A stretch of 9,315 nucleotides of DNA from JBFJWU01 sp041623475 [NCBI: bacterium]. GTDB taxonomy: Bacteria > J088. This document shows positions 3 through 9,315 of the stretch, in pieces. A program made the position numbers and the translations under genes. Location: NCBI GenBank assembly GCA_041623475.1, contig JBFJWU010000114.1, positions 1 through 9,315 on the forward strand, written 5' to 3'. Under the pieces are notes generated by a model. It searched no databases, was not told the origin of the DNA, and saw nothing but the letters and a program-made list of their open reading frames with translations. Every line of letters begins with the position of its first letter. Position 1 is the stretch's first letter.

Positions 3-434
3 TGGCGCGCGCGCGCCGACGACGGTGCCAGCGTTGGTGTCTGGTCGGAAACGGTGAACTTCAGGCTGCACGTCGTTGACACTGACACGGACGGTGACGG
101 GATCATTGACGATGATGAGCTGGAGTTGGGTACCGATCCGAATAACCCCGACACGGATGGCGATGGCCTGACCGATTTCGAGGAACTTGAATTGGGTACC
201 GATCCGACCGATCCGGACACGGATGGTGACGGCATCCCGGATGGCGACGAGGTTGACCTTGGCCTGGATCCAACAAAAGTCGATGATCTCAGAGTTGGTG
301 GAGGCGGGTGGAATTGCAGTGCGCACAACGCCGGTTCGGATGCCAGTGGGATCCCGCTGATGCTGGTCCTGATTGTTGGCGGCGTTGCAATTCGCGGCCG
401 TTCAGTGTTCTTCCGCCGCAATGCGGACGGCTGA
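3..434 (+). CDS. C-terminal part of a large exported protein with thrombospondin type 3 repeats and a sorting-like tail (5' end outside window)
   Basis: The reading frame is open at the left edge, so the gene starts upstream; the GTG at 54 is internal. The first visible residues ([16 protein letters not shown], then VNFRL) look like the last strands of a fibronectin-III/Ig-like domain. Three 22-residue repeats with DTDGDG loops, ending in LGTDP-type turns, follow; these are thrombospondin type 3 calcium-binding repeats, found on extracellular proteins. A Gly-rich linker with a single Cys (GGGGWNCSA), a short hydrophobic stretch ([15 protein letters not shown]) and an Arg-rich end (RGRSVFFRR) form a tripartite tail like the CTERM signals processed and anchored at the cell surface. 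Which CTERM family it belongs to is uncertain. The barrel gene starts 18 bases after the stop, so the two are probably co-transcribed. A surface adhesin-like or structural role is inferred; no catalytic domain is visible. Confidence 0.8.
84..281 (+). repeat. Three tandem 66-bp units encoding thrombospondin type 3 calcium-binding repeats
   Basis: DTDGDG-coding motifs begin at 84, 150 and 216, an exact 66-base (22-residue) period. A 15-base stretch, TTGGGTACCGATCCG, is identical at 126 and 192, and a diverged copy sits at 258. Near-identity at the DNA level between the first two units suggests fairly recent duplication or gene conversion. The alternating Asp residues are the calcium ligands in this repeat family. 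Confidence 0.85.
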
Positions 435-452
435 GCCTGGTATTTCTGGAGG

Positions 453-1727
453 ATGCGGGATACGCTAGTGGGCCTACTTAACAGGGCGATCTTGATCTGT
501 GCCGTTCTGGTGGTTGGGCCTGGTACGGCACTGTACGCCGACTCGACTGATTTCGAGCTGGCACAACCAACACCAGCGGGCGAGGGCGGTATCCTTGTGC
601 GCGGTGCCCGGGTTCCCAACGGTACCTGGACGGTCGGAGGGATCCTGCAGGCCGAATCCTTGCCGGTCTCCGGGTCACTGGGGCAGACATCGCGGCTCGA
701 ACCACCTGAAGTCGGCCTGAGAACGCAAGGGCGGCTGTTAGTTGGTCGTTCAGTCGTCGAGCGCGCGTACTTGTATCTGGATGCCCCAGTTGTACTGTAC
801 GAGGATCAGAATCTGTTTGCGGGCCAGACTGCCGGTTTCAATGACCTGTCGGTCGGCGTCCGCACAACTTTGTTTGATTCCGAAGTTTTCGCGTTGGCCG
901 TTGATTTGGTTGGGACATTTCCTACCGGTCGATCAGACGTTCTTGGTGGCACAGACCTGCGGGCTGTGCAGTCGACGTCGTTGTTATTGCTGGAGACGAA
1001 TGTTGCCGGGTTCTACGGACGGCTGAATGGCGGCTACCAGGAACGGCAGCGAACAAGGATTGATCGACTTAATGTCGTCGTCGATGATCGGATCGTTGGT
1101 CGTGCTGCGGCGGGATGGTCATTTTCAGAACAGCGGTTAGATGTTTTTGGCGAGTTTTCAGCCGCATACCAGGTCGATGTATTGCCCAGTCAGGATGTAT
1201 TGATGGCAGACGCAGGGGTCGGACTGCAGCACGAGATTGCCGGCTATCGACTGACAGCAGGGTTTACAATTGGAGTCGGTGATGGTTATGGCGTGCCAAC
1301 TTATCGGATGATTGCAGGTGTCTACCACGAACTGCGCCAGCGCGCGGAAAATCAGGTGATTGAGGCTCCACCGGAAACCGGTGAACTGACAATTCGTTTT
1401 GTGGACCAGGACGGCAAATCTGTATCCGGCGTAAGGGTCGATGTGCTGCGGGACAGCTTGATAATTGAATCCGATTCAACTGGTCGGGGCGGTGATGTCG
1501 AATTTGAGTTTACGTCTGGTACCATCCTGATCCAGGCATCCCACCACGATTTTGAACCTGCAATGCAGGAGTATGTGATTGTGCCGGGCACGGACACTGA
1601 AACGTCGCTGTCGCTGACCCGAAAACCGCCGCCGGATCCCGGCGAACCAACTATTGAAGAACAGTGCGGTGACGATGCAAATTGCAAGTTGCGGCTTTGG
1701 AAAGAAAAAGTCGAGGCCCAGAACTGA
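453..1727 (+). CDS. Outer-membrane beta-barrel protein with C-terminal carboxypeptidase-regulatory-like domain
   Basis: The protein starts with a signal peptide: a basic residue, hydrophobic ILICAVLVVGPGTA, then a cleavage site after ALYA (residue 29). Residues about 35-300 alternate hydrophobic and polar residues with aromatic-rich strands and Gly turns, as in transmembrane barrels. The stretch FNDLSVGVRTTLF through LVGTFPTGRSD resembles barrels that precede OmpA domains in some proteobacterial and myxobacterial outer-membrane proteins. No OmpA peptidoglycan-binding domain follows. Residues about 310-390 (GELTIRFVDQDGKSVSGVRV onwards) look instead like a CarboxypepD-regulatory/Ig-like beta sandwich. 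A Pro-rich linker then leads to a charged tail with two Cys (QCGDDANC) that could form a disulfide. Start choice is open: GGAGG at 448-452 touches the ATG at 453, while GTG at 468 has CGGGA seven bases upstream and gives a neater 24-residue signal peptide. The gene overlaps the following kinase. The transported substrate or ligand is unknown. Confidence 0.75.
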   Translation: MRDTLVGLLNRAILICAVLVVGPGTALYADSTDFELAQPTPAGEGGILVRGARVPNGTWTVGGILQAESLPVSGSLGQTSRLEPPEVGLRTQGRLLVGRSVVERAYLYLDAPVVLYEDQNLFAGQTAGFNDLSVGVRTTLFDSEVFALAVDLVGTFPTGRSDVLGGTDLRAVQSTSLLLLETNVAGFYGRLNGGYQERQRTRIDRLNVVVDDRIVGRAAAGWSFSEQRLDVFGEFSAAYQVDVLPSQDVLMADAGVGLQHEIAGYRLTAGFTIGVGDGYGVPTYRMIAGVYHELRQRAENQVIEAPPETGELTIRFVDQDGKSVSGVRVDVLRDSLIIESDSTGRGGDVEFEFTSGTILIQASHHDFEPAMQEYVIVPGTDTETSLSLTRKPPPDPGEPTIEEQCGDDANCKLRLWKEKVEAQN

Positions 1728-2878
1728 CGTCGCCGGGTCCGGGCCTGGCCGGGGTTCTCGTTTGGACGGCCGATGAGTCATTCGCTGGAAAACTGCGGCC
1801 GTTGTCAGATCAGGCCCGCTGGCGGTTGGATGTGCGATCGGATCACGACGAAATCGTCCAAGCGGTGCGAACTGGCCACGATGAATTGCTGGTGTTGGGG
1901 GCTGATCATTCCGGTGATGCAGCGATAGCGATTGTTCGCAATGTGCGCCGCATCAAGGGACATGGACAGTTGCCCATTGTTGCGGCGACAACGGATTACG
2001 ACTTTGACGTTGATCTCTTGCGAGCCGGGGTGGATCGCGTCGTACAGTGTCACCGTTCAGAAGACGTCTGGCAGGCGGCCATTCGTGATGAACTGCGTAA
2101 CAAGGCACTTGCCCGGGCATACGCATCTGCACAAACCGCCTCGATCGAGCTTGAAATGCGCAAGCGTCTGGAGACCGCACTCGAGGCGTCCAACGAGGAG
2201 CTCGAATCTGCTGTTCGCGAACGGACCGGTCAGTTGCGACAATTGGTTACCTATCTCGAAAATCACAGGGAACGTGAACAGGAGCGGGTGGCGCGGGAAA
2301 TTCACGACGAATTTGGCCAGCTACTGTCGTGCCTGAGACTGGAATTGGACCTGCTGCAGGCCAACGAAGCACGTGAAGCTGTCCAGATTGATTCCGGACT
2401 GGAGAACGCCCAGGCTTTGCTGGATGATATTCTCGACAGCGTCAGACGCATCGTTTCCGGTCTGCGGCCAAGAATCCTGGACGAACTGGGAATAATTGAT
2501 GCGATTCGTTCAATGATTTCGGATCTGGCCGGTCGCCACCGTCTGGATTTCCGATTGAAGATTCCGGACAAGATCGTACAGATGGATTCGGATACTGCGA
2601 CCGGGCTGTTCCGGATCGTTCAGGAAGCGGTAAACAACGTCGTCCGGCATTCGGGGGCGTCGGAGTTGAATGTGACGATCGAGGCCGAAGCGGGATCGAT
2701 TACAGTGATGATTGAGGACAACGGATCCGGAATACCCGACAATCTGGAAAGTCCCGGGTTCGGACTGATCAATATGCGTGAAAGGGCGACGGCATTGGGC
2801 GGGAAATGCGTGATCCGGAATCGAGCTGTTGGCGGTACGGCGCTGACCGTATCCCTGCCGACCGGTATCGGATACTAG
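1682..2878 (+). CDS. Cytoplasmic NarL-type sensor histidine kinase with degenerate receiver-like N-terminal domain
   Basis: This soluble kinase has no membrane segment. Numbering is from the TTG at 1682. Residues about 23-140 have the alternating strand/helix pattern of a receiver domain (GVLVWTADES, DELLVLGAD, GVDRVV), but Gly73 sits where the phospho-Asp would be and the conserved Lys position reads C/H. Residues about 145-198 form a coiled-coil linker. A HisKA_3 dimerisation domain carries the phosphorylated His208 (REIHDEFGQ). The HATPase_c domain shows the N box (EAVNNVVRHSG, Asn318/319), G1 (DNGSGI, Asp346) and GFGLINMRERA. This combination is typical of NarX/UhpB/DegS-type kinases that phosphorylate LuxR-type regulators; the next gene encodes such a regulator. 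The start is uncertain. TTG at 1682 or 1697 lacks a good ribosome-binding site, whereas CTG at 1724 overlaps the upstream stop as CTGA and has GAGG seven bases upstream. Overlap with the barrel gene implies translational coupling. The input signal is unknown; a protein partner at the pseudo-receiver is an inference. Confidence 0.88.
   Translation: MQVAALERKSRGPELTSPGPGLAGVLVWTADESFAGKLRPLSDQARWRLDVRSDHDEIVQAVRTGHDELLVLGADHSGDAAIAIVRNVRRIKGHGQLPIVAATTDYDFDVDLLRAGVDRVVQCHRSEDVWQAAIRDELRNKALARAYASAQTASIELEMRKRLETALEASNEELESAVRERTGQLRQLVTYLENHREREQERVAREIHDEFGQLLSCLRLELDLLQANEAREAVQIDSGLENAQALLDDILDSVRRIVSGLRPRILDELGIIDAIRSMISDLAGRHRLDFRLKIPDKIVQMDSDTATGLFRIVQEAVNNVVRHSGASELNVTIEAEAGSITVMIEDNGSGIPDNLESPGFGLINMRERATALGGKCVIRNRAVGGTALTVSLPTGIGY
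1713..1716 (+). promoter_or_regulatory. Candidate ribosome-binding site for a CTG start of the kinase
   Basis: GAGG at 1713-1716 lies seven bases before CTG at 1724-1726, which is in frame with the kinase and overlaps the barrel gene's TGA stop (1725-1727). The spacing is ideal and better than that of the upstream TTG candidates. CTG starts are rare, so this is tentative. Confidence 0.4.
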
Positions 2879-2895: not shown

Positions 2896-2914
2896 GAAAA
2901 GGCTGTTGGGCCAG

Positions 2915-3544
2915 GTGATTCGTATTTTTATTGCCGATGACCACGCGATGTTCCGCGACGGGGTCAGGAGGATTCTGTCGATGCAGTCCGGGATGCATTT
3001 TTCCGGTGAAGCCGAAAACGGCGGTGAACTGTTGCGCCGGGCCAGGCAGGAACGCTGGGATGTCCTGTTGCTTGACCTTGGTCTGCAGGACATCCACGGT
3101 CTGGAAGTCATAAAACAGATTCGGCCGATACAGCCCGACCTGAATATTCTGGTCCTGACTATGTATCCGGAAGAACAGTATGCCGCCCGGGTTTTTCGCG
3201 CCGGCGGGAATGGTTATATCAACAAGGGCAGTCGTGGAAAAGAACTGGTTGACGCAATTCAGCAGGTATATGCAAACGGCTTCTATGGCAGCGCTGATGC
3301 CCAGAAGTTGTTTGCGGAGATGGACAACTCCCCGGACAGTCCAATGCACGAACAGCTGTCGGACCGGGAGTACGAGGTGTTTATGTTAACTGCGGAAGGA
3401 AAGTCGACCAGCGAAATCGCGTCAGAGTTGAAGCTGGTCGCGAGCACGGTCAGTACCTATCGGAAACGAATCATTGAGAAACTGGGTCTCCGGAATGCCC
3501 GTGACATCGTAAAATATGCGATAGAGAATGACTTGTTGGCCTGA
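2915..3544 (+). CDS. NarL/FixJ-family response regulator (receiver plus LuxR-type HTH)
   Basis: This is a 209-residue transcription factor, normal for the family. Numbering is from GTG at 2915. The receiver domain (about 1-120) has the acidic pair in IADDH (Asp8/Asp9), phospho-acceptor Asp54 in LLLDLGL, Thr82 in LTMY and Lys104 in YINKGS, so it should be phosphorylated normally. A short linker leads to a LuxR-type helix-turn-helix (about 145-205), with LSDREYEVF and the recognition region STVSTYRKRIIEKLGL. That pattern is close to the GacA/UvrY and RcsB-like branch. I chose GTG at 2915 because it puts the usual hydrophobic-first strand (IRIFIADDH) directly at the N terminus. TTG at 2906 would add three residues and has a poorly spaced AAAAGG. 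The gene lies 36 bases after the HisKA_3 kinase, its probable partner. Target genes are unknown; the surface-protein genes upstream are candidates. Confidence 0.92.
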   Translation: MIRIFIADDHAMFRDGVRRILSMQSGMHFSGEAENGGELLRRARQERWDVLLLDLGLQDIHGLEVIKQIRPIQPDLNILVLTMYPEEQYAARVFRAGGNGYINKGSRGKELVDAIQQVYANGFYGSADAQKLFAEMDNSPDSPMHEQLSDREYEVFMLTAEGKSTSEIASELKLVASTVSTYRKRIIEKLGLRNARDIVKYAIENDLLA

Positions 3545-3547
3545 GTC

Positions 3548-3588
3548 AATTATTGCGAACCGATCGCGTATCGGACAGCAATGTAATT
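3548..3588 (+). other. Long imperfect hairpin just after the response regulator stop
   Basis: Nested arms pair as AATT (3548-3551/3585-3588), ATTGC/GCAAT (3552-3556/3578-3582) and CCGAT/ATCGG (3560-3564/3570-3574), with a symmetric 3x3 internal loop and a CGCGT apical loop. It begins three bases after the stop. The following bases are not T-rich, so it is better read as an mRNA 3'-end or processing structure than as a classical terminator. A Rho-assisted end is possible. Confidence 0.45.
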
Positions 3589-3599
3589 TAGTCCTCAGG

Positions 3600-3617
3600 G
3601 GGCCGTCGTACCGGCCC
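3600..3617 (+). other. GC-rich inverted repeat upstream of the sigma-54 promoter
   Basis: GGGCCG (3600-3605) and CGGCCC (3612-3617) form a perfect six-pair stem around TCGTAC. There is no U tract. It lies about 60 bases upstream of the -24 element of the promoter at 3677, so it could be an activator site or a second 3'-end structure of the preceding operon. Confidence 0.35.
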
Positions 3618-3676
3618 GAGATGTTGCATCCACGCATCATCACAATTACAAATTTCCGGTAATCGGGCTTGATTTC

Positions 3677-3692
3677 TGGCATAAAGCTTGCT
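3677..3692 (+). promoter_or_regulatory. Sigma-54 (-24/-12) promoter for the NIT-domain kinase
   Basis: TGGCATAAAGCTTGCT fits the consensus TGGCAYR-N4-TTGCW at every fixed position, with GG (3678-3679) and GC (3690-3691) separated by exactly ten bases. The predicted transcript start is near 3703. This falls downstream of the TTG codon at 3669 that would give the longest frame, so translation should begin at ATG 3705 or ATG 3726. Such promoters need an enhancer-binding activator; no clear site for a known one was recognised upstream. Confidence 0.65.
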
Positions 3693-3704
3693 AATTCTGT
3701 GCCA

Positions 3705-5882
3705 ATGGGAACCATAAAAAACAAAATGTCCCGTGCACTCGGCAGCGATGCGCTGCACACGAGTGCGGTGACGGATGCCCGTTTTGTCCGCGGTGCGCTC
3801 TGGCTGCTTGTACTGGGGCCCTGGTTCGGCATTACACTGCTGTCCTACGATGCCTGGCGACACGCGCAGCGTATGTCTTTTGCCGCGGAGGAAGTTCAAA
3901 CACTGACAGATATTGCCAGCGAAATTTCTGGTCTGGTACGATCCGTCGAGCTTGAGCGGGGACTGGTTTTTTCCGGAATCGGTTCCGACCCAGCGGGCGA
4001 GAGGGACATTCAGGACGGTCTGGCTCGACTGGAAGCGTTGGTTGCCCGGTCTATGCCCGATGAAAAGGGACGGGTTGATGAGATCCGAAAGCTTCGTGAA
4101 GTCGCAGTTCAGATTTGCCTGTCTTCGGAGGAGCAACGATTCGGTTGTTTTTCGGCACACTCGAATGTCGTCGGGCAACTGATTTCACTGGCGGAAGCTG
4201 CGCAGTCTGGCACGATGAGCCAGATGGCAGGAGTCTTGTACTTGCGGTACGTTGCCGTTCTGCTGGAAAGAGAGGCCATGGCGACGGTTCGGGGGTTGGG
4301 TGCTCGGTTGCCCGGCGCTGACACCGACGTTGGCAATCTGGTTCGCTACTTTGACATAGCGGTAATCAAACTGCAGGATTCCAGGCGTTTGCGGAAAGTC
4401 CTGGGCGGACATGACATTCCCGAATTTCCCGCAGTTGACTACTCTGAAGAGGCCCAGAGCCTGATTGAAGGCGGTGCTTCGCAGGCAACATCCTGGTTTG
4501 AAAAAATGACAGCAGGTGTCGATGCCCTTTACCGGGTCGAGCAGGAACTGCTGCGGGAACTCGCAGATGAAGCACTGGGCAAAAGCACCGCGGCGCGAAA
4601 GCGATTTCGCAACATAGCGGTTCTTTTTGTGTTGTTCGGGGTCGCCGGGTTGATGGTAGGGGTCGCGACGGTAACACGGGTGAACCGGCAGTATTCAACA
4701 ACGCGGAACCTTCTGTCCGCACGATCGGAACTGCTTGATGAACTGGAACAAACGCAACACGAATTGTCAGGAATCATCAGTATTGCCGACGATGCCATTG
4801 TCAGCGTTGACGATCAGCACCGAATTGTTCGGTACAACCTGGGTGCTGAAAAAATATTCGGATTCGGCTACGACGAGGTAGTTGGGCAGGACCTTTCCGT
4901 ATTGCTTCCCGAAGATGTCCGCAAGGGACATCCGGAACATCTCCGAAAGTTTGCAAAAGCGCCAGAGGTTTCCAGGTTAATGCGAAGCCGGAATGCAGTT
5001 TTCGGTCGTCGCAAGGACGGTAAGCTATTCCCGGCGCGCGCATCGATTTCGAAACTCGAGACCTCACGTGGCATCATTTTTACCGCAATCTTGCGTGATG
5101 AATCTGAAATCGTCGCGGCGATGGACGAGATCGAGTCTTATTCACAACGTCTTGAGGAGATGAACAGCGGCCTGCGTGCCGCGGTAAAAAGCCGTAACCA
5201 ACTGTTGGGTATGGCCGCCCATGACCTGAGGAACCCCCTGACAGTAATAAAGGCATCCGCGGCCTTCCTTTCTTCGCCTGCCTTCGGTACGCGGGAACGG
5301 GATGAGGCGGATTTGCTTGACCGGATCTCGGGTGCTTCAGAGTTTATGCTGAAGCTGATTGAGGACGTTTTGGACATATCCGTCATTGAAAGTGGCGAAT
5401 TGAGACTGGAACGGCAACCAACTGTTTTGAATGATATCGTTCTTGAGGTCGTCGATATCATGGGGCCGGCTGCGGAACTCAAAGGCATTTCAATATCCGT
5501 AGATCTAGATGATCGCCTACCGAAAATTTCTATTGACGGAAGCAAGATTTCCCAGGTCTTGCAGAACCTGATCAGCAACGCGGTCAAGTATTCCGAGCCA
5601 AAAACCCGAGTCATTGTGAAAACAGAAAAAAGCGACCGAGGGGTGATGTTCAGCGTCAAGGACGAGGGGCTGGGGATACCTGAAGTTGAGTTAGGGAATC
5701 TGTTTAAACCATTCGGCAAGCTTTCGCCTCGGCCAACCGGCGGCGAGAGAAGTACCGGGCTTGGCCTTGCGATCGTTCACCGCATCGTGTCCGAACATGG
5801 CGCTGAAGTCGAAGTTGTCAGTAAGGCGGGGCAGGGATCGACATTCTCAATCAGATTTCCAGTAGATTCCACGAAGGATTGA
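3705..5882 (+). CDS. Membrane sensor histidine kinase with NIT, PAS, HisKA and HATPase domains
   Basis: Numbering is from ATG 3705 (725 residues). TM1 (about 30-51, GALWLLVLGPWFGITLL) and TM2 (about 300-325) enclose a helical extracytoplasmic domain of roughly 245 residues. That domain carries NIT (nitrate/nitrite-sensing) hallmarks: VELERGLVF near 82-90, LLEREAMATVRG near 186-197 and, before TM2, the ATSWFEKMTAGVDALYRVE helix. A short helical linker precedes a PAS domain (about 353-470, ending GRRKDGKLFPARAS and ILRDESE). The HisKA domain has His506 in MAAHDLRNPL. The ATPase domain shows the N box (NLISNAVKY, Asn625), G1 (DEGLGIP, Asp653), the F box (FKPFGKL) and G2 (STGLGLAIV). All catalytic motifs are intact. 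No regulator lies immediately beside it of the kind HisKA kinases usually use, so it appears orphan. The start follows from the sigma-54 promoter; ATG 3726 is the alternative. Nitrate or nitrite as ligand is inferred from the family. Confidence 0.88.
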   Translation: MGTIKNKMSRALGSDALHTSAVTDARFVRGALWLLVLGPWFGITLLSYDAWRHAQRMSFAAEEVQTLTDIASEISGLVRSVELERGLVFSGIGSDPAGERDIQDGLARLEALVARSMPDEKGRVDEIRKLREVAVQICLSSEEQRFGCFSAHSNVVGQLISLAEAAQSGTMSQMAGVLYLRYVAVLLEREAMATVRGLGARLPGADTDVGNLVRYFDIAVIKLQDSRRLRKVLGGHDIPEFPAVDYSEEAQSLIEGGASQATSWFEKMTAGVDALYRVEQELLRELADEALGKSTAARKRFRNIAVLFVLFGVAGLMVGVATVTRVNRQYSTTRNLLSARSELLDELEQTQHELSGIISIADDAIVSVDDQHRIVRYNLGAEKIFGFGYDEVVGQDLSVLLPEDVRKGHPEHLRKFAKAPEVSRLMRSRNAVFGRRKDGKLFPARASISKLETSRGIIFTAILRDESEIVAAMDEIESYSQRLEEMNSGLRAAVKSRNQLLGMAAHDLRNPLTVIKASAAFLSSPAFGTRERDEADLLDRISGASEFMLKLIEDVLDISVIESGELRLERQPTVLNDIVLEVVDIMGPAAELKGISISVDLDDRLPKISIDGSKISQVLQNLISNAVKYSEPKTRVIVKTEKSDRGVMFSVKDEGLGIPEVELGNLFKPFGKLSPRPTGGERSTGLGLAIVHRIVSEHGAEVEVVSKAGQGSTFSIRFPVDSTKD

Positions 5883-5920: not shown

Positions 5921-7282
5921 TTACAACAACCCTTTCTCCACCATTTCTTCCCGCACGTGCAGGTACTCCTCTGACCGCTTCAAACGATCGGCACCCGTTT
6001 CAACGGCGACCTTCACCATTCTTGGATATCTGGCCGAGATCTTCTCGAACGCCTCCATATCCAGTTGAAACAGGGTAACTTCGCGACTGGCGATACAGCT
6101 CGCTGTGGCCGGACTGTTTGATATCAAACTGATCTCGCCAAAGAAATCACCCGCTCCCAGATGGTTGATGATTACCTCGCGGCCAGCGTCTTCGGATTTT
6201 GTAACGACGACATCGCCGGTGTCAATTACGTACAACCCCGACGGGCTGTCTCCCTCACGAATAATAAATTCGCCGAATGACACAGTCCTGGGACTGAATT
6301 CCTTGATCAGCCCAAGTTGTTCGCCTTCGTCCAATGTTGAAAACAGCGGACTGATTCGGAGAACCGCGCCGATCAGCCGTTTCTTGTAATAATCGTGCAG
6401 GACCTGGGACACTTCTGGATAACGTGCAGCGATTACGGCCAGGTCATCACGATTGATCGACAGGGTTTCGACCCGCGTCCGGGCACCAACACTGGCAGTC
6501 CGGCGAGCACCCGAGAAGAATGCCATTTCGCCAAAAAATTCAGACTCGCCCATTCGTGCAACTTCAGCATCAACACCGTCCGGACCTTTGCGTGTGACTG
6601 AAACTTCGCCGGAAATAATGATGTAAAGGACGTCACCTTTTTCACCCTCACGGACAATGGATTTGCCCGGCGAAAACGTTTCAAAGCTCAATCGGTCAAT
6701 TAACTGCTCCAGGTGTTCCGGCATCAGCGCAGACAGCAGGGGGAGTTCAGGAAGCTTGTCAACGATCGCCTCTATACTTTCAGGGCGGTCTGTAACGCTG
6801 GCATGGATTGCCATCTGGTCGACAAAGTATTCAACGGAATCCAGTTCATCAGCTTCCAGATGCCGGGCGAGGGTTTTCCGCGTCACCTGGATTGACTCTT
6901 CGTCGGGCACAATTTCGCCAAAAACCGACCTGAAATTCCGAGCAGAGTCCGGGTCTACCCTGCTCGCCAATCTGGACAAGGCCTGTTTGGTTTCCTGCTG
7001 ATTCGGATCAATTGCGAGGATGCGCTTGTTAATGCCAATAGCATTCAAAAGGTTGCCATCCATGGCTGCGCGATAGGCGGCGACTCGAAATATTTCCAAG
7101 GCCGCTTTTTTGCGACCGCTTAGAAGCGTTGACTCGCCGAGACGGACCATCAGGCTGACATTGTCGGGGTCATATCGCAACGCCTGTGAGTACAGCTTGG
7201 CGGCGCCTTCATGATTGCCGCTGCCAGTAAGGACATCGGCTTCGCCAAGTATTTTCTCGACATTTTGAGAGGATTTGTCCAA
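5921..7282 (-). CDS. TPR protein with two cyclic-nucleotide-binding domains
   Basis: The protein has 453 residues numbered from TTG 7282. Residues about 8-105 form TPR-like helical pairs (NHEGAAKLYSQALRYDPDN, later NKRILAIDPN), which usually bind proteins. After a helical linker come two CAP-type cNMP-binding domains at about 183-295 and 310-425. The first has a complete phosphate-binding cassette (FFGEMAFFSGARRTASV, with Gly251, Glu252 and Arg261). The second has FFGEISLISNSPATASC with Gly382 and Glu383, but Ala392 replaces the usual Arg. No helix-turn-helix, kinase, channel or membrane segment is present, so it is probably a cytoplasmic cNMP-responsive adaptor. TTG 7282 is preferred because AGGAG lies seven bases upstream. 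The ATG at 7300 has no ribosome-binding site and sits just two bases after TATAAT, so it is likely upstream of the transcript start. The gene diverges from the LysM-FecR gene. Partner and nucleotide (cAMP, cGMP or other) are unknown. Confidence 0.85.
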   Translation of the reverse strand: MDKSSQNVEKILGEADVLTGSGNHEGAAKLYSQALRYDPDNVSLMVRLGESTLLSGRKKAALEIFRVAAYRAAMDGNLLNAIGINKRILAIDPNQQETKQALSRLASRVDPDSARNFRSVFGEIVPDEESIQVTRKTLARHLEADELDSVEYFVDQMAIHASVTDRPESIEAIVDKLPELPLLSALMPEHLEQLIDRLSFETFSPGKSIVREGEKGDVLYIIISGEVSVTRKGPDGVDAEVARMGESEFFGEMAFFSGARRTASVGARTRVETLSINRDDLAVIAARYPEVSQVLHDYYKKRLIGAVLRISPLFSTLDEGEQLGLIKEFSPRTVSFGEFIIREGDSPSGLYVIDTGDVVVTKSEDAGREVIINHLGAGDFFGEISLISNSPATASCIASREVTLFQLDMEAFEKISARYPRMVKVAVETGADRLKRSEEYLHVREEMVEKGLL

Positions 7283-7289
7283 TTTGGTG

Positions 7290-7294
7290 CTCCT
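7290..7294 (-). promoter_or_regulatory. Ribosome-binding site that sets the TTG start of the cNMP-binding gene
   Basis: On the - strand AGGAG (7294 to 7290) is followed by CACCAAA and then TTG at 7282. Spacing is seven bases. The in-frame ATG at 7300 lies upstream of this site, which argues against that ATG as the start. Confidence 0.65.
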
Positions 7295-7302
7295 GTGCAT
7301 AA

Positions 7303-7406: not shown

Positions 7407-8438
7407 ATGTTTAAATTTCTTCGGTTGGCGGTAATCGGTGTAATGCTGGCAAATGGCACGACGTACGCGGAGCCAGACGGTCAAGTCACTGAGAAATCTA
7501 TTGAAGTCAAGCCCGGGGATACATTGTCGAAAATCGCCGAAACGCACCTCGGTGATGCCGCGAAATGGTACATTCTGCTGCGATTCAACGATATTCGAGA
7601 TCCAAACCTGATCTATCCGGGCATGAAGCTGAAATATTCGGAGAAAATCAAGTCAGGTGAGATTGTCGAGGCAGAGATCTTTTATGCAACTGAGGGTCAG
7701 GCGATGTACAAGTGGAAGACCCTGGAGCAAGTATTGAAGACCGGTGACCGGGTGCCGGCCAAGGGCGAAATCTCTGTAAAAAAGGGCACAGTTACGCTGC
7801 TGTTGCCGGACAAGTCCAAAATTATCATGGGCGAGAATTCTGTCCTGAAGATCAAGGACGTGTTTGCCAACACCGAAGAAAATGTCTTCATGTCGTTTTT
7901 CGAGAATGTCCGCGGGCGGATTCGCTACAAGATTACGGAGCTGTTTGGCGAAAGTCGTTTTGAAGTTGAAACAAGATCTGCGGTGGCAGGGGTACGAGGT
8001 ACAGAGTTCGAAATTTTTGTTGTTGACGGCCAGGATGTCAAGATTGCGACACTTGAGGGTGCTGTGGCTGTCCGCGGCAACAATGAAGAAAAATCGACTC
8101 TGGTTGAGGCTGGCGAAGGGGTGGTCGTAGACACTTCGGCGGAAAAGATTTCAAGAAAAACCCGGTTGCTGGGCGCGCCCCAGAACCTTGGGTACCGCAA
8201 TAATCCAAACGGAACAATTACCTTTTTCTGGGAGCCCGTGCAAGGGGCAACCGACTATGCCCTGTATATTGCCGAAGATCGTGATTTTGCAACCGGTGTC
8301 TTGATCGGCGAAATCAAAGGTAATGATATTACGATCCGGCAGGTGCCGGAAGGCCGTTATTACCTGAAATGTGATGCGATCGATCCCGAGGGGATGTCCA
8401 GTGTCCCGGGCAAGGTTGTCCTGTTGATGATTGATTGA
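7407..8438 (+). CDS. Exported LysM and FecR domain protein
   Basis: This is a 343-residue periplasmic protein. ATG 7407 has a strong GGGAGG site six bases upstream. A signal peptide (MFKFLRLAVIGVMLANG) is probably cleaved after TYA at residue 21. A LysM domain at about 32-77 (VKPGDTLSKIAETHLGD, ending NLIYPGMKLKY) should bind peptidoglycan. The FecR domain spans about 115-222: a GEISVKKGTVTLLLPD strand region, then FEVETRSAVAGVRGTEF (185-201), the family's most conserved stretch, and ATLEGAVAV. The C-terminal part (about 258-340, FFWEPVQGATDYALYIAED) resembles a fibronectin-III-like fold. There is no TonB box, membrane segment or neighbouring ECF sigma factor, so it is not a classical FecR anti-sigma regulator. 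LysM-FecR proteins of this type are known beside CHASE2-type cyclases or kinases in other bacteria; none is inside this window. Divergence from a cNMP-binding gene makes a link to nucleotide signalling possible. Confidence 0.88.
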   Translation: MFKFLRLAVIGVMLANGTTYAEPDGQVTEKSIEVKPGDTLSKIAETHLGDAAKWYILLRFNDIRDPNLIYPGMKLKYSEKIKSGEIVEAEIFYATEGQAMYKWKTLEQVLKTGDRVPAKGEISVKKGTVTLLLPDKSKIIMGENSVLKIKDVFANTEENVFMSFFENVRGRIRYKITELFGESRFEVETRSAVAGVRGTEFEIFVVDGQDVKIATLEGAVAVRGNNEEKSTLVEAGEGVVVDTSAEKISRKTRLLGAPQNLGYRNNPNGTITFFWEPVQGATDYALYIAEDRDFATGVLIGEIKGNDITIRQVPEGRYYLKCDAIDPEGMSSVPGKVVLLMID

Positions 8439-8688
8439 GCGCCTGTCGTTCAATAATGTCTGTGAGCTGACAAACCGGAAACGCCCGCACTTCCGTCGGT
8501 GCGCAGGCCTGTATGGGACAAGTAAGTCGTTGTAGTTAAAGACTTTTCCGGGCGCGGGGCGGGTTTGGGTTGATGCCGCCCGACTGTGGCGGGACAGGTT
8601 GCATCATCTCGTGCAGGCCCGTTTCATGTACAATCGAAAATGATTCAGTGTGGTTCGAATTGTATTGCAGATCAAAGGCAGTTGCGAC
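8439..8688 (+). other. 250-base spacer with no gene: weak hairpins and a possible promoter for the esterase
   Basis: No credible coding frame was found. A five-pair hairpin, CGCAC/GTGCG (8486-8490/8499-8503), follows the LysM-FecR gene without a T tract, so no clear intrinsic terminator is present. TACAAT at 8629-8634 could be a -10 box for the esterase, but no good -35 lies 17 bases upstream. The GC-rich structure at 8557-8593 is listed separately. Confidence 0.4.
8557..8593 (+). other. Mutually exclusive GC-rich hairpins upstream of the esterase
   Basis: GGGCGG (8557-8562) can pair with CCGCCC (8576-8581) around a 13-base loop. Alternatively CCGCC (8576-8580) can pair with GGCGG (8588-8592) around CGACTGT. 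The two stems share the same central arm and cannot form together, an arrangement seen in attenuators. If the promoter is the TACAAT at 8629, this element would not be transcribed in the esterase leader. Confidence 0.35.
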
Positions 8689-9315
8689 TTGGGACGGCTG
8701 GTATATGTTGCGGGATTGATTGCGATGTTTGTGCCCGGGGTCGGCGTTGCCGAGGATGCGAAATTGACCAAAGTCCTGTTTCTTGGCGATTCGCTGACGG
8801 AAGGGTATGGGGTTCGACCGGAACAGGCGTTTCCGGAACGGATCAAGCAACTCGCGTCCACGCGTTTGGGGAAAGACATTGAAATTCTCAACGCCGGAGT
8901 CAGCGGATCGACTACCGCCAGTGGGCTGGACCGTCTCAGGTGGTATCTGAAACAGGAACCGGACATCCTCGTCCTGGCCCTGGGCGCGAATGACGGGTTG
9001 CGGGGGGTGCCGCCGGAGTCCAGCAGGAAGAATCTGGAGCAGATTGTTGTCGCCGCGAAACAGGCCGGGCTGACGATTGTCCTGGCAGGGATGATGCTGC
9101 CTCCGAATTACGGGCCAAAGCATACGTCGGAATTCCGGGAAATGTTTGCTGCAATCGCCCGGAAACATGAACTGATCCTGATTCCGTTCCTGCTAGAAGG
9201 GGTCGCTGGTGACCACCGCTATAACCTGCCTGACGGGATCCATCCGAACGGGATGTTCGGCCTAGAGATCAAGTGTCCATCGGCAAAAGTTCATGCGGGC
9301 TATGTGCGCGACCCC
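8689..9315 (+). CDS. tesA: TesA-like SGNH hydrolase (arylesterase / acyl-CoA thioesterase / lysophospholipase), 3' end outside window
   Basis: The frame is open at the right edge; 209 codons are visible, numbered from TTG 8689. The signal peptide GRLVYVAGLIAMFVPGVGVA is cleaved after residue 21, giving a periplasmic enzyme. SGNH blocks are clear: I, FLGDSLTEGYG with nucleophile Ser35; II, NAGVSGST with oxyanion Gly70; III, ALGANDGLRG with Asn101; V, DGIHPN with Asp182 and His185. The MMLPPNYGPKHTSEF stretch also matches E. coli TesA. The family hydrolyses acyl thioesters, aryl esters and lysophospholipids. TTG 8689 was chosen because it yields a compact signal peptide and has AAAGG ten bases upstream; an in-frame GTG at 8650 is the alternative. 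After DGIHPN the sequence reads GMFGLEIKCPSAKVH rather than the usual amphipathic closing helix, so the C terminus is divergent, frameshifted or rearranged. The catalytic core is intact. Confidence 0.85.
   Translation, partial: MGRLVYVAGLIAMFVPGVGVAEDAKLTKVLFLGDSLTEGYGVRPEQAFPERIKQLASTRLGKDIEILNAGVSGSTTASGLDRLRWYLKQEPDILVLALGANDGLRGVPPESSRKNLEQIVVAAKQAGLTIVLAGMMLPPNYGPKHTSEFREMFAAIARKHELILIPFLLEGVAGDHRYNLPDGIHPNGMFGLEIKCPSAKVHAGYVRDP

What the first reader, a model, noticed from the sequence alone, without database searches (positions are those of the whole stretch)
3677..5882. Sigma-54 promoter driving an orphan NIT-PAS histidine kinase
The 16-base element matches the -24/-12 consensus at all fixed positions with correct spacing and sits directly before a kinase whose extracytoplasmic domain carries NIT-family motifs. 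Sigma-54 control of a nitrate/nitrite-type sensor would form a nitrogen-linked input unit. The kinase has no adjacent partner of the expected regulator type, so its output is unknown.
Basis: partly seen in the sequence, partly recalled or inferred. Interest (0 to 1): 0.6.

Follow-up and report, generated by a model that had tools for sequence, protein, structure and literature searches.

The report
NIT and FixL-type PAS sensor kinase
The window encodes a bacterial membrane sensor kinase with an outer domain of the nitrate-sensor (NIT) family and an inner domain that looks like the heme oxygen sensors FixL and DosP, preceded by a plausible but unproven sigma-54 promoter; it is an ordinary kind of signalling protein whose two inputs can be tested.

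Summary
The -24/-12 element is real as sequence: TGGCATAAAGCTTGCT at 3677-3692 holds the window's only exact TGGC-N7-TTGC. Over a third of shuffled windows (730 of 2,000) hold one by chance, but only 223 of 50,000 shuffles of the 160-base sense-strand gap where it lies. Against a matrix from 34 ChIP-mapped RpoN sites it scores 13.0 bits (23 of 34 reach that). I put a working sigma-54 promoter at about 0.5; rpoN could not be tested (no genome held) and no close relative was found.

The NIT call holds, weakly: just above Pfam's cut-off on the isolated domain (25.6 vs 24.9 bits), below it on the whole protein (21.8); the nitrate regulator NasR is the best structural match to a low-confidence model. 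Nitrate binding is not shown.

Best reading: a dual-input kinase (periplasmic NIT, cytoplasmic heme-PAS) with its partner encoded elsewhere. The nitrogen link is inference. New member of a known kind.

The parts
3676..3693 (+). -24/-12 (sigma-54-like) element CTGGCATAAAGCTTGCTA; predicted transcript start near 3703
   Evidence: exact TGGC-N7-TTGC; 13.0 bits on a matrix of 34 ChIP-mapped RpoN sites
3688..3705 (-). overlapping opposite-strand sigma-54-like sequence TTGGCACAGAATTAGCAA sharing the GC at 3690-3691; with the + element forms TGGCA-N18-TGCCA
   Evidence: second-best matrix hit of the window, 12.2 bits; 0.00045 chance of such an overlap given the + site (post hoc)
3705..5882 (+). sensor histidine kinase, 725 aa from ATG 3705 (718 aa from ATG 3726, the start that fits the promoter better)
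3786..3842 (+). hydrophobic (membrane) segment 1, residues 28-46
   Evidence: Kyte-Doolittle window 1.61
3936..4562 (+). NIT domain, residues 78-286, presumably periplasmic
   Evidence: PF08376 25.6/25.1 bits on isolated stretches; NasR best structural match
4614..4670 (+). hydrophobic (membrane) segment 2, residues 304-322
   Evidence: Kyte-Doolittle window 2.52
4791..5108 (+). PAS domain (PAS_9, residues 363-468), FixL/DosP-like
4929..4931 (+). His409, aligned with the heme-ligand histidine of FixL and DosP
4989..4991 (+). Arg429, aligned with the distal-side arginine of FixL/DosP if one residue is taken as an insertion
   Evidence: shifted by one column
5190..5396 (+). HisKA domain, phospho-acceptor His506 in HDLRNP
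5535..5867 (+). HATPase_c catalytic domain
2906..3544 (+). neighbour: NarL/LuxR-type response regulator (receiver + GerE)
1682..2878 (+). neighbour: HisKA_3-type histidine kinase (start codon uncertain), likely partner of that regulator

Best explanation
A membrane-anchored, dual-input sensor histidine kinase. A periplasmic NIT domain, held between two membrane helices, binds a small anion or another ligand (nitrate/nitrite possible, not shown). The signal passes by helix movement through the second membrane helix and a linker to a cytoplasmic PAS domain of the FixL/DosP type, which probably holds heme on His409 and reports O2, NO or redox state. Together they set autophosphorylation of His506 and phosphotransfer to a response regulator encoded elsewhere. 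Transcription is possibly from a sigma-54 promoter at 3676-3693 (about even odds), with translation then from ATG 3726, so that the sensor would be made only when some enhancer-binding activator is on. Shown: domain order, motif residues, the element and its spacing. Inferred: topology, heme, ligand, partner, promoter use.
For: HisKA, HATPase_c and PAS over Pfam cut-offs. NIT over cut-off on the isolated region, the only family reported there at E up to 10 (on the longer 352-aa piece DUF3040 also appears, E 0.031). NasR ranks first by Foldseek (prob 0.99, E 0.022, TM 0.43 on the query) and by VIA-align (Z 9.6, rmsd 6.7, 232 residues; the next longest alignment of the 50 rows listed is 182). 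PAS: of 15 solved sequences at E<=0.01, 7 are FixL and 6 E. coli DosP (two of these under other names, identified from memory); best NCBIfam equivalogs are FixL (2.6e-16) and DosP (2.9e-14), with the general S-box model between them; [quoted passage not shown] Promoter: 13.0 bits, reached by 23 of 34 mapped sites in leave-one-out; chance of such a best score in 160 bases 0.004.
Against: NIT score below cut-off on the full protein (21.8 and 21.6 bits); phmmer of the domain finds no NasR in the PDB at E up to 10; a profile of 11 other NIT domains finds only the C-terminal motif at 5.7 bits, equalled by the best of 1,000 shuffles, and hhalign gives probability 3.8%. Both models are low confidence (pLDDT 47.8 and 56.8), no Foldseek match has E<=0.001, and Z 9.6 is within the range the tool calls noise for helical bundles. 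NIT pocket: Q-x-x-R of NasR is E-x-x-R here and G-x-E-R aligns with A-T-V-R. About 40% of FixL-cluster PAS domains lack the histidine, and having it does not prove heme; FixL and DosP whole-protein cut-offs are not met. Promoter: no relative to test conservation; start codon almost on the predicted start; one sigma-70-like match (9 of 12) at 3501-3529 (0.5 expected); none of 11 NIT genes from other genomes with readable upstream has a site as good.
Confidence: 0.55

Rival explanations
1. The -24/-12 match is a chance sequence. The kinase is read from another promoter or by read-through from the upstream kinase-regulator pair, which ends 160 bases before.
For: 730 of 2,000 shuffled windows hold such a match somewhere; 0.41 background hits of equal score per window; start codon 3705 lies 2 bases past the predicted start; a sigma-70-like match at 3501-3529 (9 of 12; 0.5 expected) and only one weak terminator-like stem in the gap (5 pairs, 3655-3667; 0.5 expected).
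Against: It lies in the sense-strand gap where it could work (about 0.004 by chance), and scores like mapped sites.
Confidence: 0.45
2. The 28-base inverted repeat TGGCA-N18-TGCCA (3677-3704), not the -24/-12 pair, is the functional unit: a dimeric regulator's operator over the kinase start.
For: A second sigma-54-like sequence on the other strand shares the same GC; probability 0.00045 given the first.
Against: Noticed after the fact; as a plain dyad it scores 4.0, below the best dyad of the gap (5.0), which itself 201 of 300 shuffles reach. I recall no regulator with this operator.
Confidence: 0.08
3. The PAS domain has no heme and serves only as a dimerisation and signal-relay element; NIT alone is the sensor.
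For: PAS domains can relay without a cofactor (general knowledge); the FixL Arg200 position is Lys415 here and the F-G region carries one extra residue.
Against: Heme histidine kept, and 13 of 15 matching solved sequences are FixL or DosP.
Confidence: 0.35
4. The kinase feeds the adjacent NarL-type regulator (2906-3544).
For: Adjacency, same strand.
Against: That regulator has a HisKA_3 kinase, the usual partner type, 27 bases upstream; HisKA (PF00512) kinases usually pair with OmpR- or NtrC-type regulators (general knowledge).
Confidence: 0.12

Closest known systems
FixL / DosP heme-PAS sensors
   Same: PAS sequence, heme-ligand histidine, a possible distal-side arginine; FixL too is a PAS-HisKA kinase
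   Different: No NIT domain there and FixL works with FixJ (recalled); S. meliloti FixL Arg200 is Lys here; one extra residue in the F-G region; far below the FixL equivalog cut-off
NasR (NIT-ANTAR nitrate regulator) and NIT-containing kinases and chemoreceptors (PF08376)
   Same: NIT profile match, motifs, best structural match; both pocket arginines aligned
   Different: NasR has an RNA-binding ANTAR output (PMC7496416, passages); pocket Gln/Gly/Glu positions are Glu/Ala/Val here
NarX / NarQ
   Same: membrane kinases for nitrate/nitrite
   Different: another sensor domain (four-helix bundle with P-box), HAMP, HisKA_3 kinases paired with NarL/NarP (mostly recalled; review PMC8199190 seen in passages)
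sigma-54 promoters, consensus TGGCACG-N4-TTGC (PMC3224663, passages)
   Same: both blocks, GG-N10-GC spacing, 9 of 11 consensus bases
   Different: sixth and seventh bases are T and A instead of C and G; very close to the start codon

Membership tests
sigma-54 promoter | GG and GC at -24/-12 with ten bases between, in TGGC and TTGC blocks | tested here: met
   13.0 bits against 34 mapped sites
sigma-54 promoter | rpoN in the same genome | not testable with these tools
   no whole genome held for the window
sigma-54 promoter | conserved before orthologues | not testable with these tools
   no close relative found: genome contigs gave one locus matching only residues 611-666, viral contigs none
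sigma-54 promoter | transcript start near 3703, lost without rpoN | not testable with these tools
   no expression data
sigma-54 promoter | enhancer (activator) site upstream | tested here: inconclusive
   best dyads of the gap are not above shuffles (201 of 300 as good)
NIT domain (PF08376) | score over Pfam cut-off | tested here: inconclusive
   25.6 and 25.1 bits on isolated stretches, 21.8 and 21.6 on the whole protein, cut-off 24.9
NIT domain (PF08376) | fold like NasR | tested here: inconclusive
   NasR rank 1, but the model has pLDDT 56.8 and Z 9.6 is in the stated noise range for helical bundles
NIT domain (PF08376) | nitrate/nitrite binding | not testable with these tools
   arginines kept, other pocket positions changed; register of the second motif uncertain
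FixL/DosP-type heme PAS | heme-ligand histidine in the F helix | tested here: met
   His409 in alignments with FixL of two species and E. coli DosP
FixL/DosP-type heme PAS | nearest solved relatives are heme PAS domains | tested here: met
   13 of 15 solved sequences at E<=0.01 are FixL or DosP
FixL/DosP-type heme PAS | bound heme | not testable with these tools
   needs protein
FixL equivalog (NF041777) | score over the equivalog cut-off | tested here: not met
   111.8 bits against 850: it is not FixL itself
HisKA histidine kinase | HisKA and HATPase_c with H, N, F, G boxes | tested here: met

The most novel reading that the evidence does not exclude
One kinase reads nitrate outside (NIT) and oxygen or NO inside (heme-PAS) and is itself made only under sigma-54 control, giving a three-way AND gate of nitrogen or stress state, electron acceptor and oxygen for switching to nitrate respiration or denitrification.
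Probability: 0.12. Interest if true: 0.6.

Novelty: new member of a known kind. Interest (0 to 1): 0.3.

Why it matters
NIT ligands are an open question: NasR responds to nitrate and nitrite (PMC7496416, passages), yet the NIT domain of PA4520 bound neither (PMC6381276, passages). A NIT domain joined to a FixL-type PAS would be a natural object in which to test nitrate and oxygen on one molecule. If the promoter is real, it adds an enhancer-dependent switch over the sensor's own supply. As the evidence stands it is a sensible annotation with testable parts, not a new kind of system.

Tried and rejected
So no orthologue could be compared, and the host's taxon was not determined.

Own genome and rpoN: not held. 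A sigma-54 domain in 39 of 41 genomes around the Bacteroidales genome G001 says nothing about this host.

Upstream enhancer: a 31-base interrupted palindrome at 3552-3582 looked like an activator site, but 201 of 300 shuffles of the gap give a dyad as good, and the RNA fold there is ordinary (z -1.3). Dropped.

NIT kinase genes in general having such promoters: one search found 14 NIT matches in 8 of 395 genomes and gave loci for 12; best upstream scores for 11 of these 12 were -5.8 to 10.5 bits, none at 13.0; the twelfth had no readable start. One of the 11 had only 35 bases of upstream and start codons were chosen by rule, in another phylum as far as L001's title tells, so this is a weak test. 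phmmer with the PAS domain found nothing in 11 of those proteins, three of them cut by the locus end.

Foldseek on the longer first model gave no match at E<=0.001; NarQ fragments ranked 3 and 5 at E 0.20 and 0.24. phmmer of the sensor region against the PDB gave one chance hit and none for the domain alone.

Papers: searches for NIT with kinase (15 of 19 listed, 15 of 7,498 listed), sigma-54 kinases (3 of 3), NIT with heme or FixL (12 of 199), nitrate with heme-PAS (none), nitrate and oxygen kinases (10 of 28) listed nothing that I recognised from title and abstract start as a NIT plus heme-PAS kinase. Most of these were seen as listing only, so this is no proof of absence.

Full report
The element. 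TGGC-N7-TTGC stands at 3677-3691 on the + strand without mismatch and nowhere else in the window. How surprising that is depends on the question: 730 of 2,000 dinucleotide shuffles of the whole window hold one somewhere on either strand; 84 of 2,000 hold the longer TGGCA-N6-TTGCW, 22 of 2,000 YTGGCAY-N5-TTGCW; 223 of 50,000 shuffles of the 160-base gap (3545-3704) hold TGGC-N7-TTGC on the sense strand. Against the published consensus TGGCACG-N4-TTGC it matches 9 of 11 bases, as does the validated glnA site of Xylella (PMC3224663, passages). I built a matrix from the 34 intergenic sense sites listed for RpoN ChIP-seq in Yersinia pseudotuberculosis (PMC7657599; part 1 of 3 of the section with Table 1 read; its 3 intergenic antisense rows and the intragenic sites of Table 2 were not used). 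The element scores 13.0 bits, rank 24 of 35 beside the leave-one-out scores of the 34, 23 of which reach 13.0. A Markov background gives 0.41 equal or better hits per window on both strands and about 0.004 for the gap. With a prior of 1-3% that an operon has a sigma-54 promoter (my estimate) and uncertainty about rpoN, I arrive at about one half.

Geometry. Counting 12 bases on from the C of the -12 GC (3691) puts the transcript start at 3703, two bases before ATG 3705, which has no ribosome-binding site (-0.1 kcal/mol). ATG 3726, in frame, has a weak one (-4.2), lying rather far upstream (about 15 bases), and would leave a 23-base leader. If the promoter is used, 3726 is the better start; the protein loses seven residues before the first membrane helix. 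A sigma-70-like match (9 of 12 bases; 0.5 expected) lies further up at 3501-3529, inside the regulator gene.

An oddity at the same place. The second-best matrix hit of the window lies on the other strand at 3688-3705 (12.2 bits) and shares the GC at 3690-3691. Given the first site, chance makes such an overlap at 0.00045, but I tested it after seeing it, and as a dyad it is not above shuffles. Antisense to it lies only the regulator gene, read the other way. I leave it unexplained.

The sensor domain. Two hydrophobic segments (residues 28-46 and 304-322) enclose 257 residues. Pfam NIT matches nearly end to end: 21.8 bits in the whole protein, 25.6 and 25.1 on isolated stretches, cut-off 24.9; it is the only family reported for the 248-aa domain at E up to 10. 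A single-sequence model of residues 48-300 has low confidence (pLDDT 56.8), yet its best match in a library of 350,542 chains is NasR, the NIT protein of known structure (Foldseek probability 0.99, E 0.022, rmsd 10.6; VIA-align Z 9.6 over 232 residues, rmsd 6.7, against at most 182 residues in the other 49 rows listed). Z of this size can be noise for helical bundles; rank and coverage are what speak for it. Eleven NIT domains taken from a search of 395 genomes, of which 8 had NIT (14 matches), align with it at 12-17% identity. Against this, a profile made from those 11 recovers only the C-terminal W-F-x-x-x-T stretch at 5.7 bits, which the best of 1,000 shuffles equals, hhalign gives 3.8%, and phmmer does not find NasR at all, while the same 11-domain profile does (5.7e-12). 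I accept NIT as a distant member, at about 0.85.

Nitrate. NasR carries L-Q-C-E-R-G and A-G-Q-E-R-A; E175 and R176 are named as predicted pocket residues in PMC7496416 (passages), and PMC8199190 describes two arginines with a G-x-x-R motif in which one glycine is glutamine in NasR (passages). Here the first motif is E82-L-E-R85 and the second aligns with A193-T-V-R196; the register of the second is uncertain, as L-L-E-R lies one heptad before. Arginines kept, neighbours changed: nitrate is possible, not shown. [quoted passage not shown]

The PAS domain. It matches PAS_9 at 48.8 bits. Fifteen distinct solved sequences match at E<=0.01: seven named FixL, four named DosP, two more that I know as E. 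coli DosP under the names 'heme pas sensor protein' and yddU, one multi-sensor kinase, and one weak sensory-box protein. Among NCBIfam models the best are FixL 2.6e-16, the general S-box 2.3e-15 and DosP 2.9e-14; FixL and DosP are far below their whole-protein cut-offs. His409 in R-K-G-H-P-E-H aligns with the heme histidine of both FixL proteins and of DosP (R-P-A-H-P-E-Y), and a histidine stands there in two cyanobacterial relatives, whose cofactor I do not know. [quoted passage not shown] DosP uses H77 as proximal ligand (PMC4263535, passages); it is residue 69 of the 799-aa E. coli annotation, eight residues shorter than the 807-aa chain. Arg429 falls on the distal-side arginine in one alignment and one column off in another. 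S. meliloti FixL Arg200 (number from PMC10765370, passages; its place is my count from a recalled His194) is Lys415 here. I put heme binding at about 0.6.

The rest. HisKA with His506 in HDLRNP, N, G and F boxes and HATPase_c are intact. The neighbours upstream are a HisKA_3 kinase and a NarL-type regulator, a natural pair; downstream, on the other strand, lies a TPR plus twin cyclic-nucleotide-domain protein. So the kinase is an orphan within this window.

Verdict. The ordinary description is a NIT-PAS-HisKA kinase, a new member of a known kind.

Noticed in passing
window 3677-3704: Two sigma-54-like sequences on opposite strands share one GC, giving TGGCA-N18-TGCCA; no gene is oriented to be read from the antisense one.
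   Followed up: partly
window 3552-3582: Interrupted palindrome ATTGC-N3-CCGAT-N5-ATCGG-N3-GCAAT just after the regulator's stop; not above shuffles.
   Followed up: yes
window 1682-2878: The HisKA_3 kinase begins with about 150 residues that look like a degenerate receiver domain (only weak hits: PDE8A_N E 0.073; PhoB 0.0034 and NblR 0.0053); its start codon is unclear and its frame overlaps the previous gene.
   Followed up: no
window 5921-7300 (-): TPR repeats followed by two cyclic-nucleotide-binding domains, no DNA-binding domain reported by Pfam.
   Followed up: no
window 7407-8438: LysM plus FecR-domain protein, probably secreted; beyond it (8650-9315) a GDSL lipase resembling TesA, cut by the window end.
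   Followed up: no
window 3-434: TSP3-type repeats (three stretches) at the end of a protein that begins outside the window.
   Followed up: no
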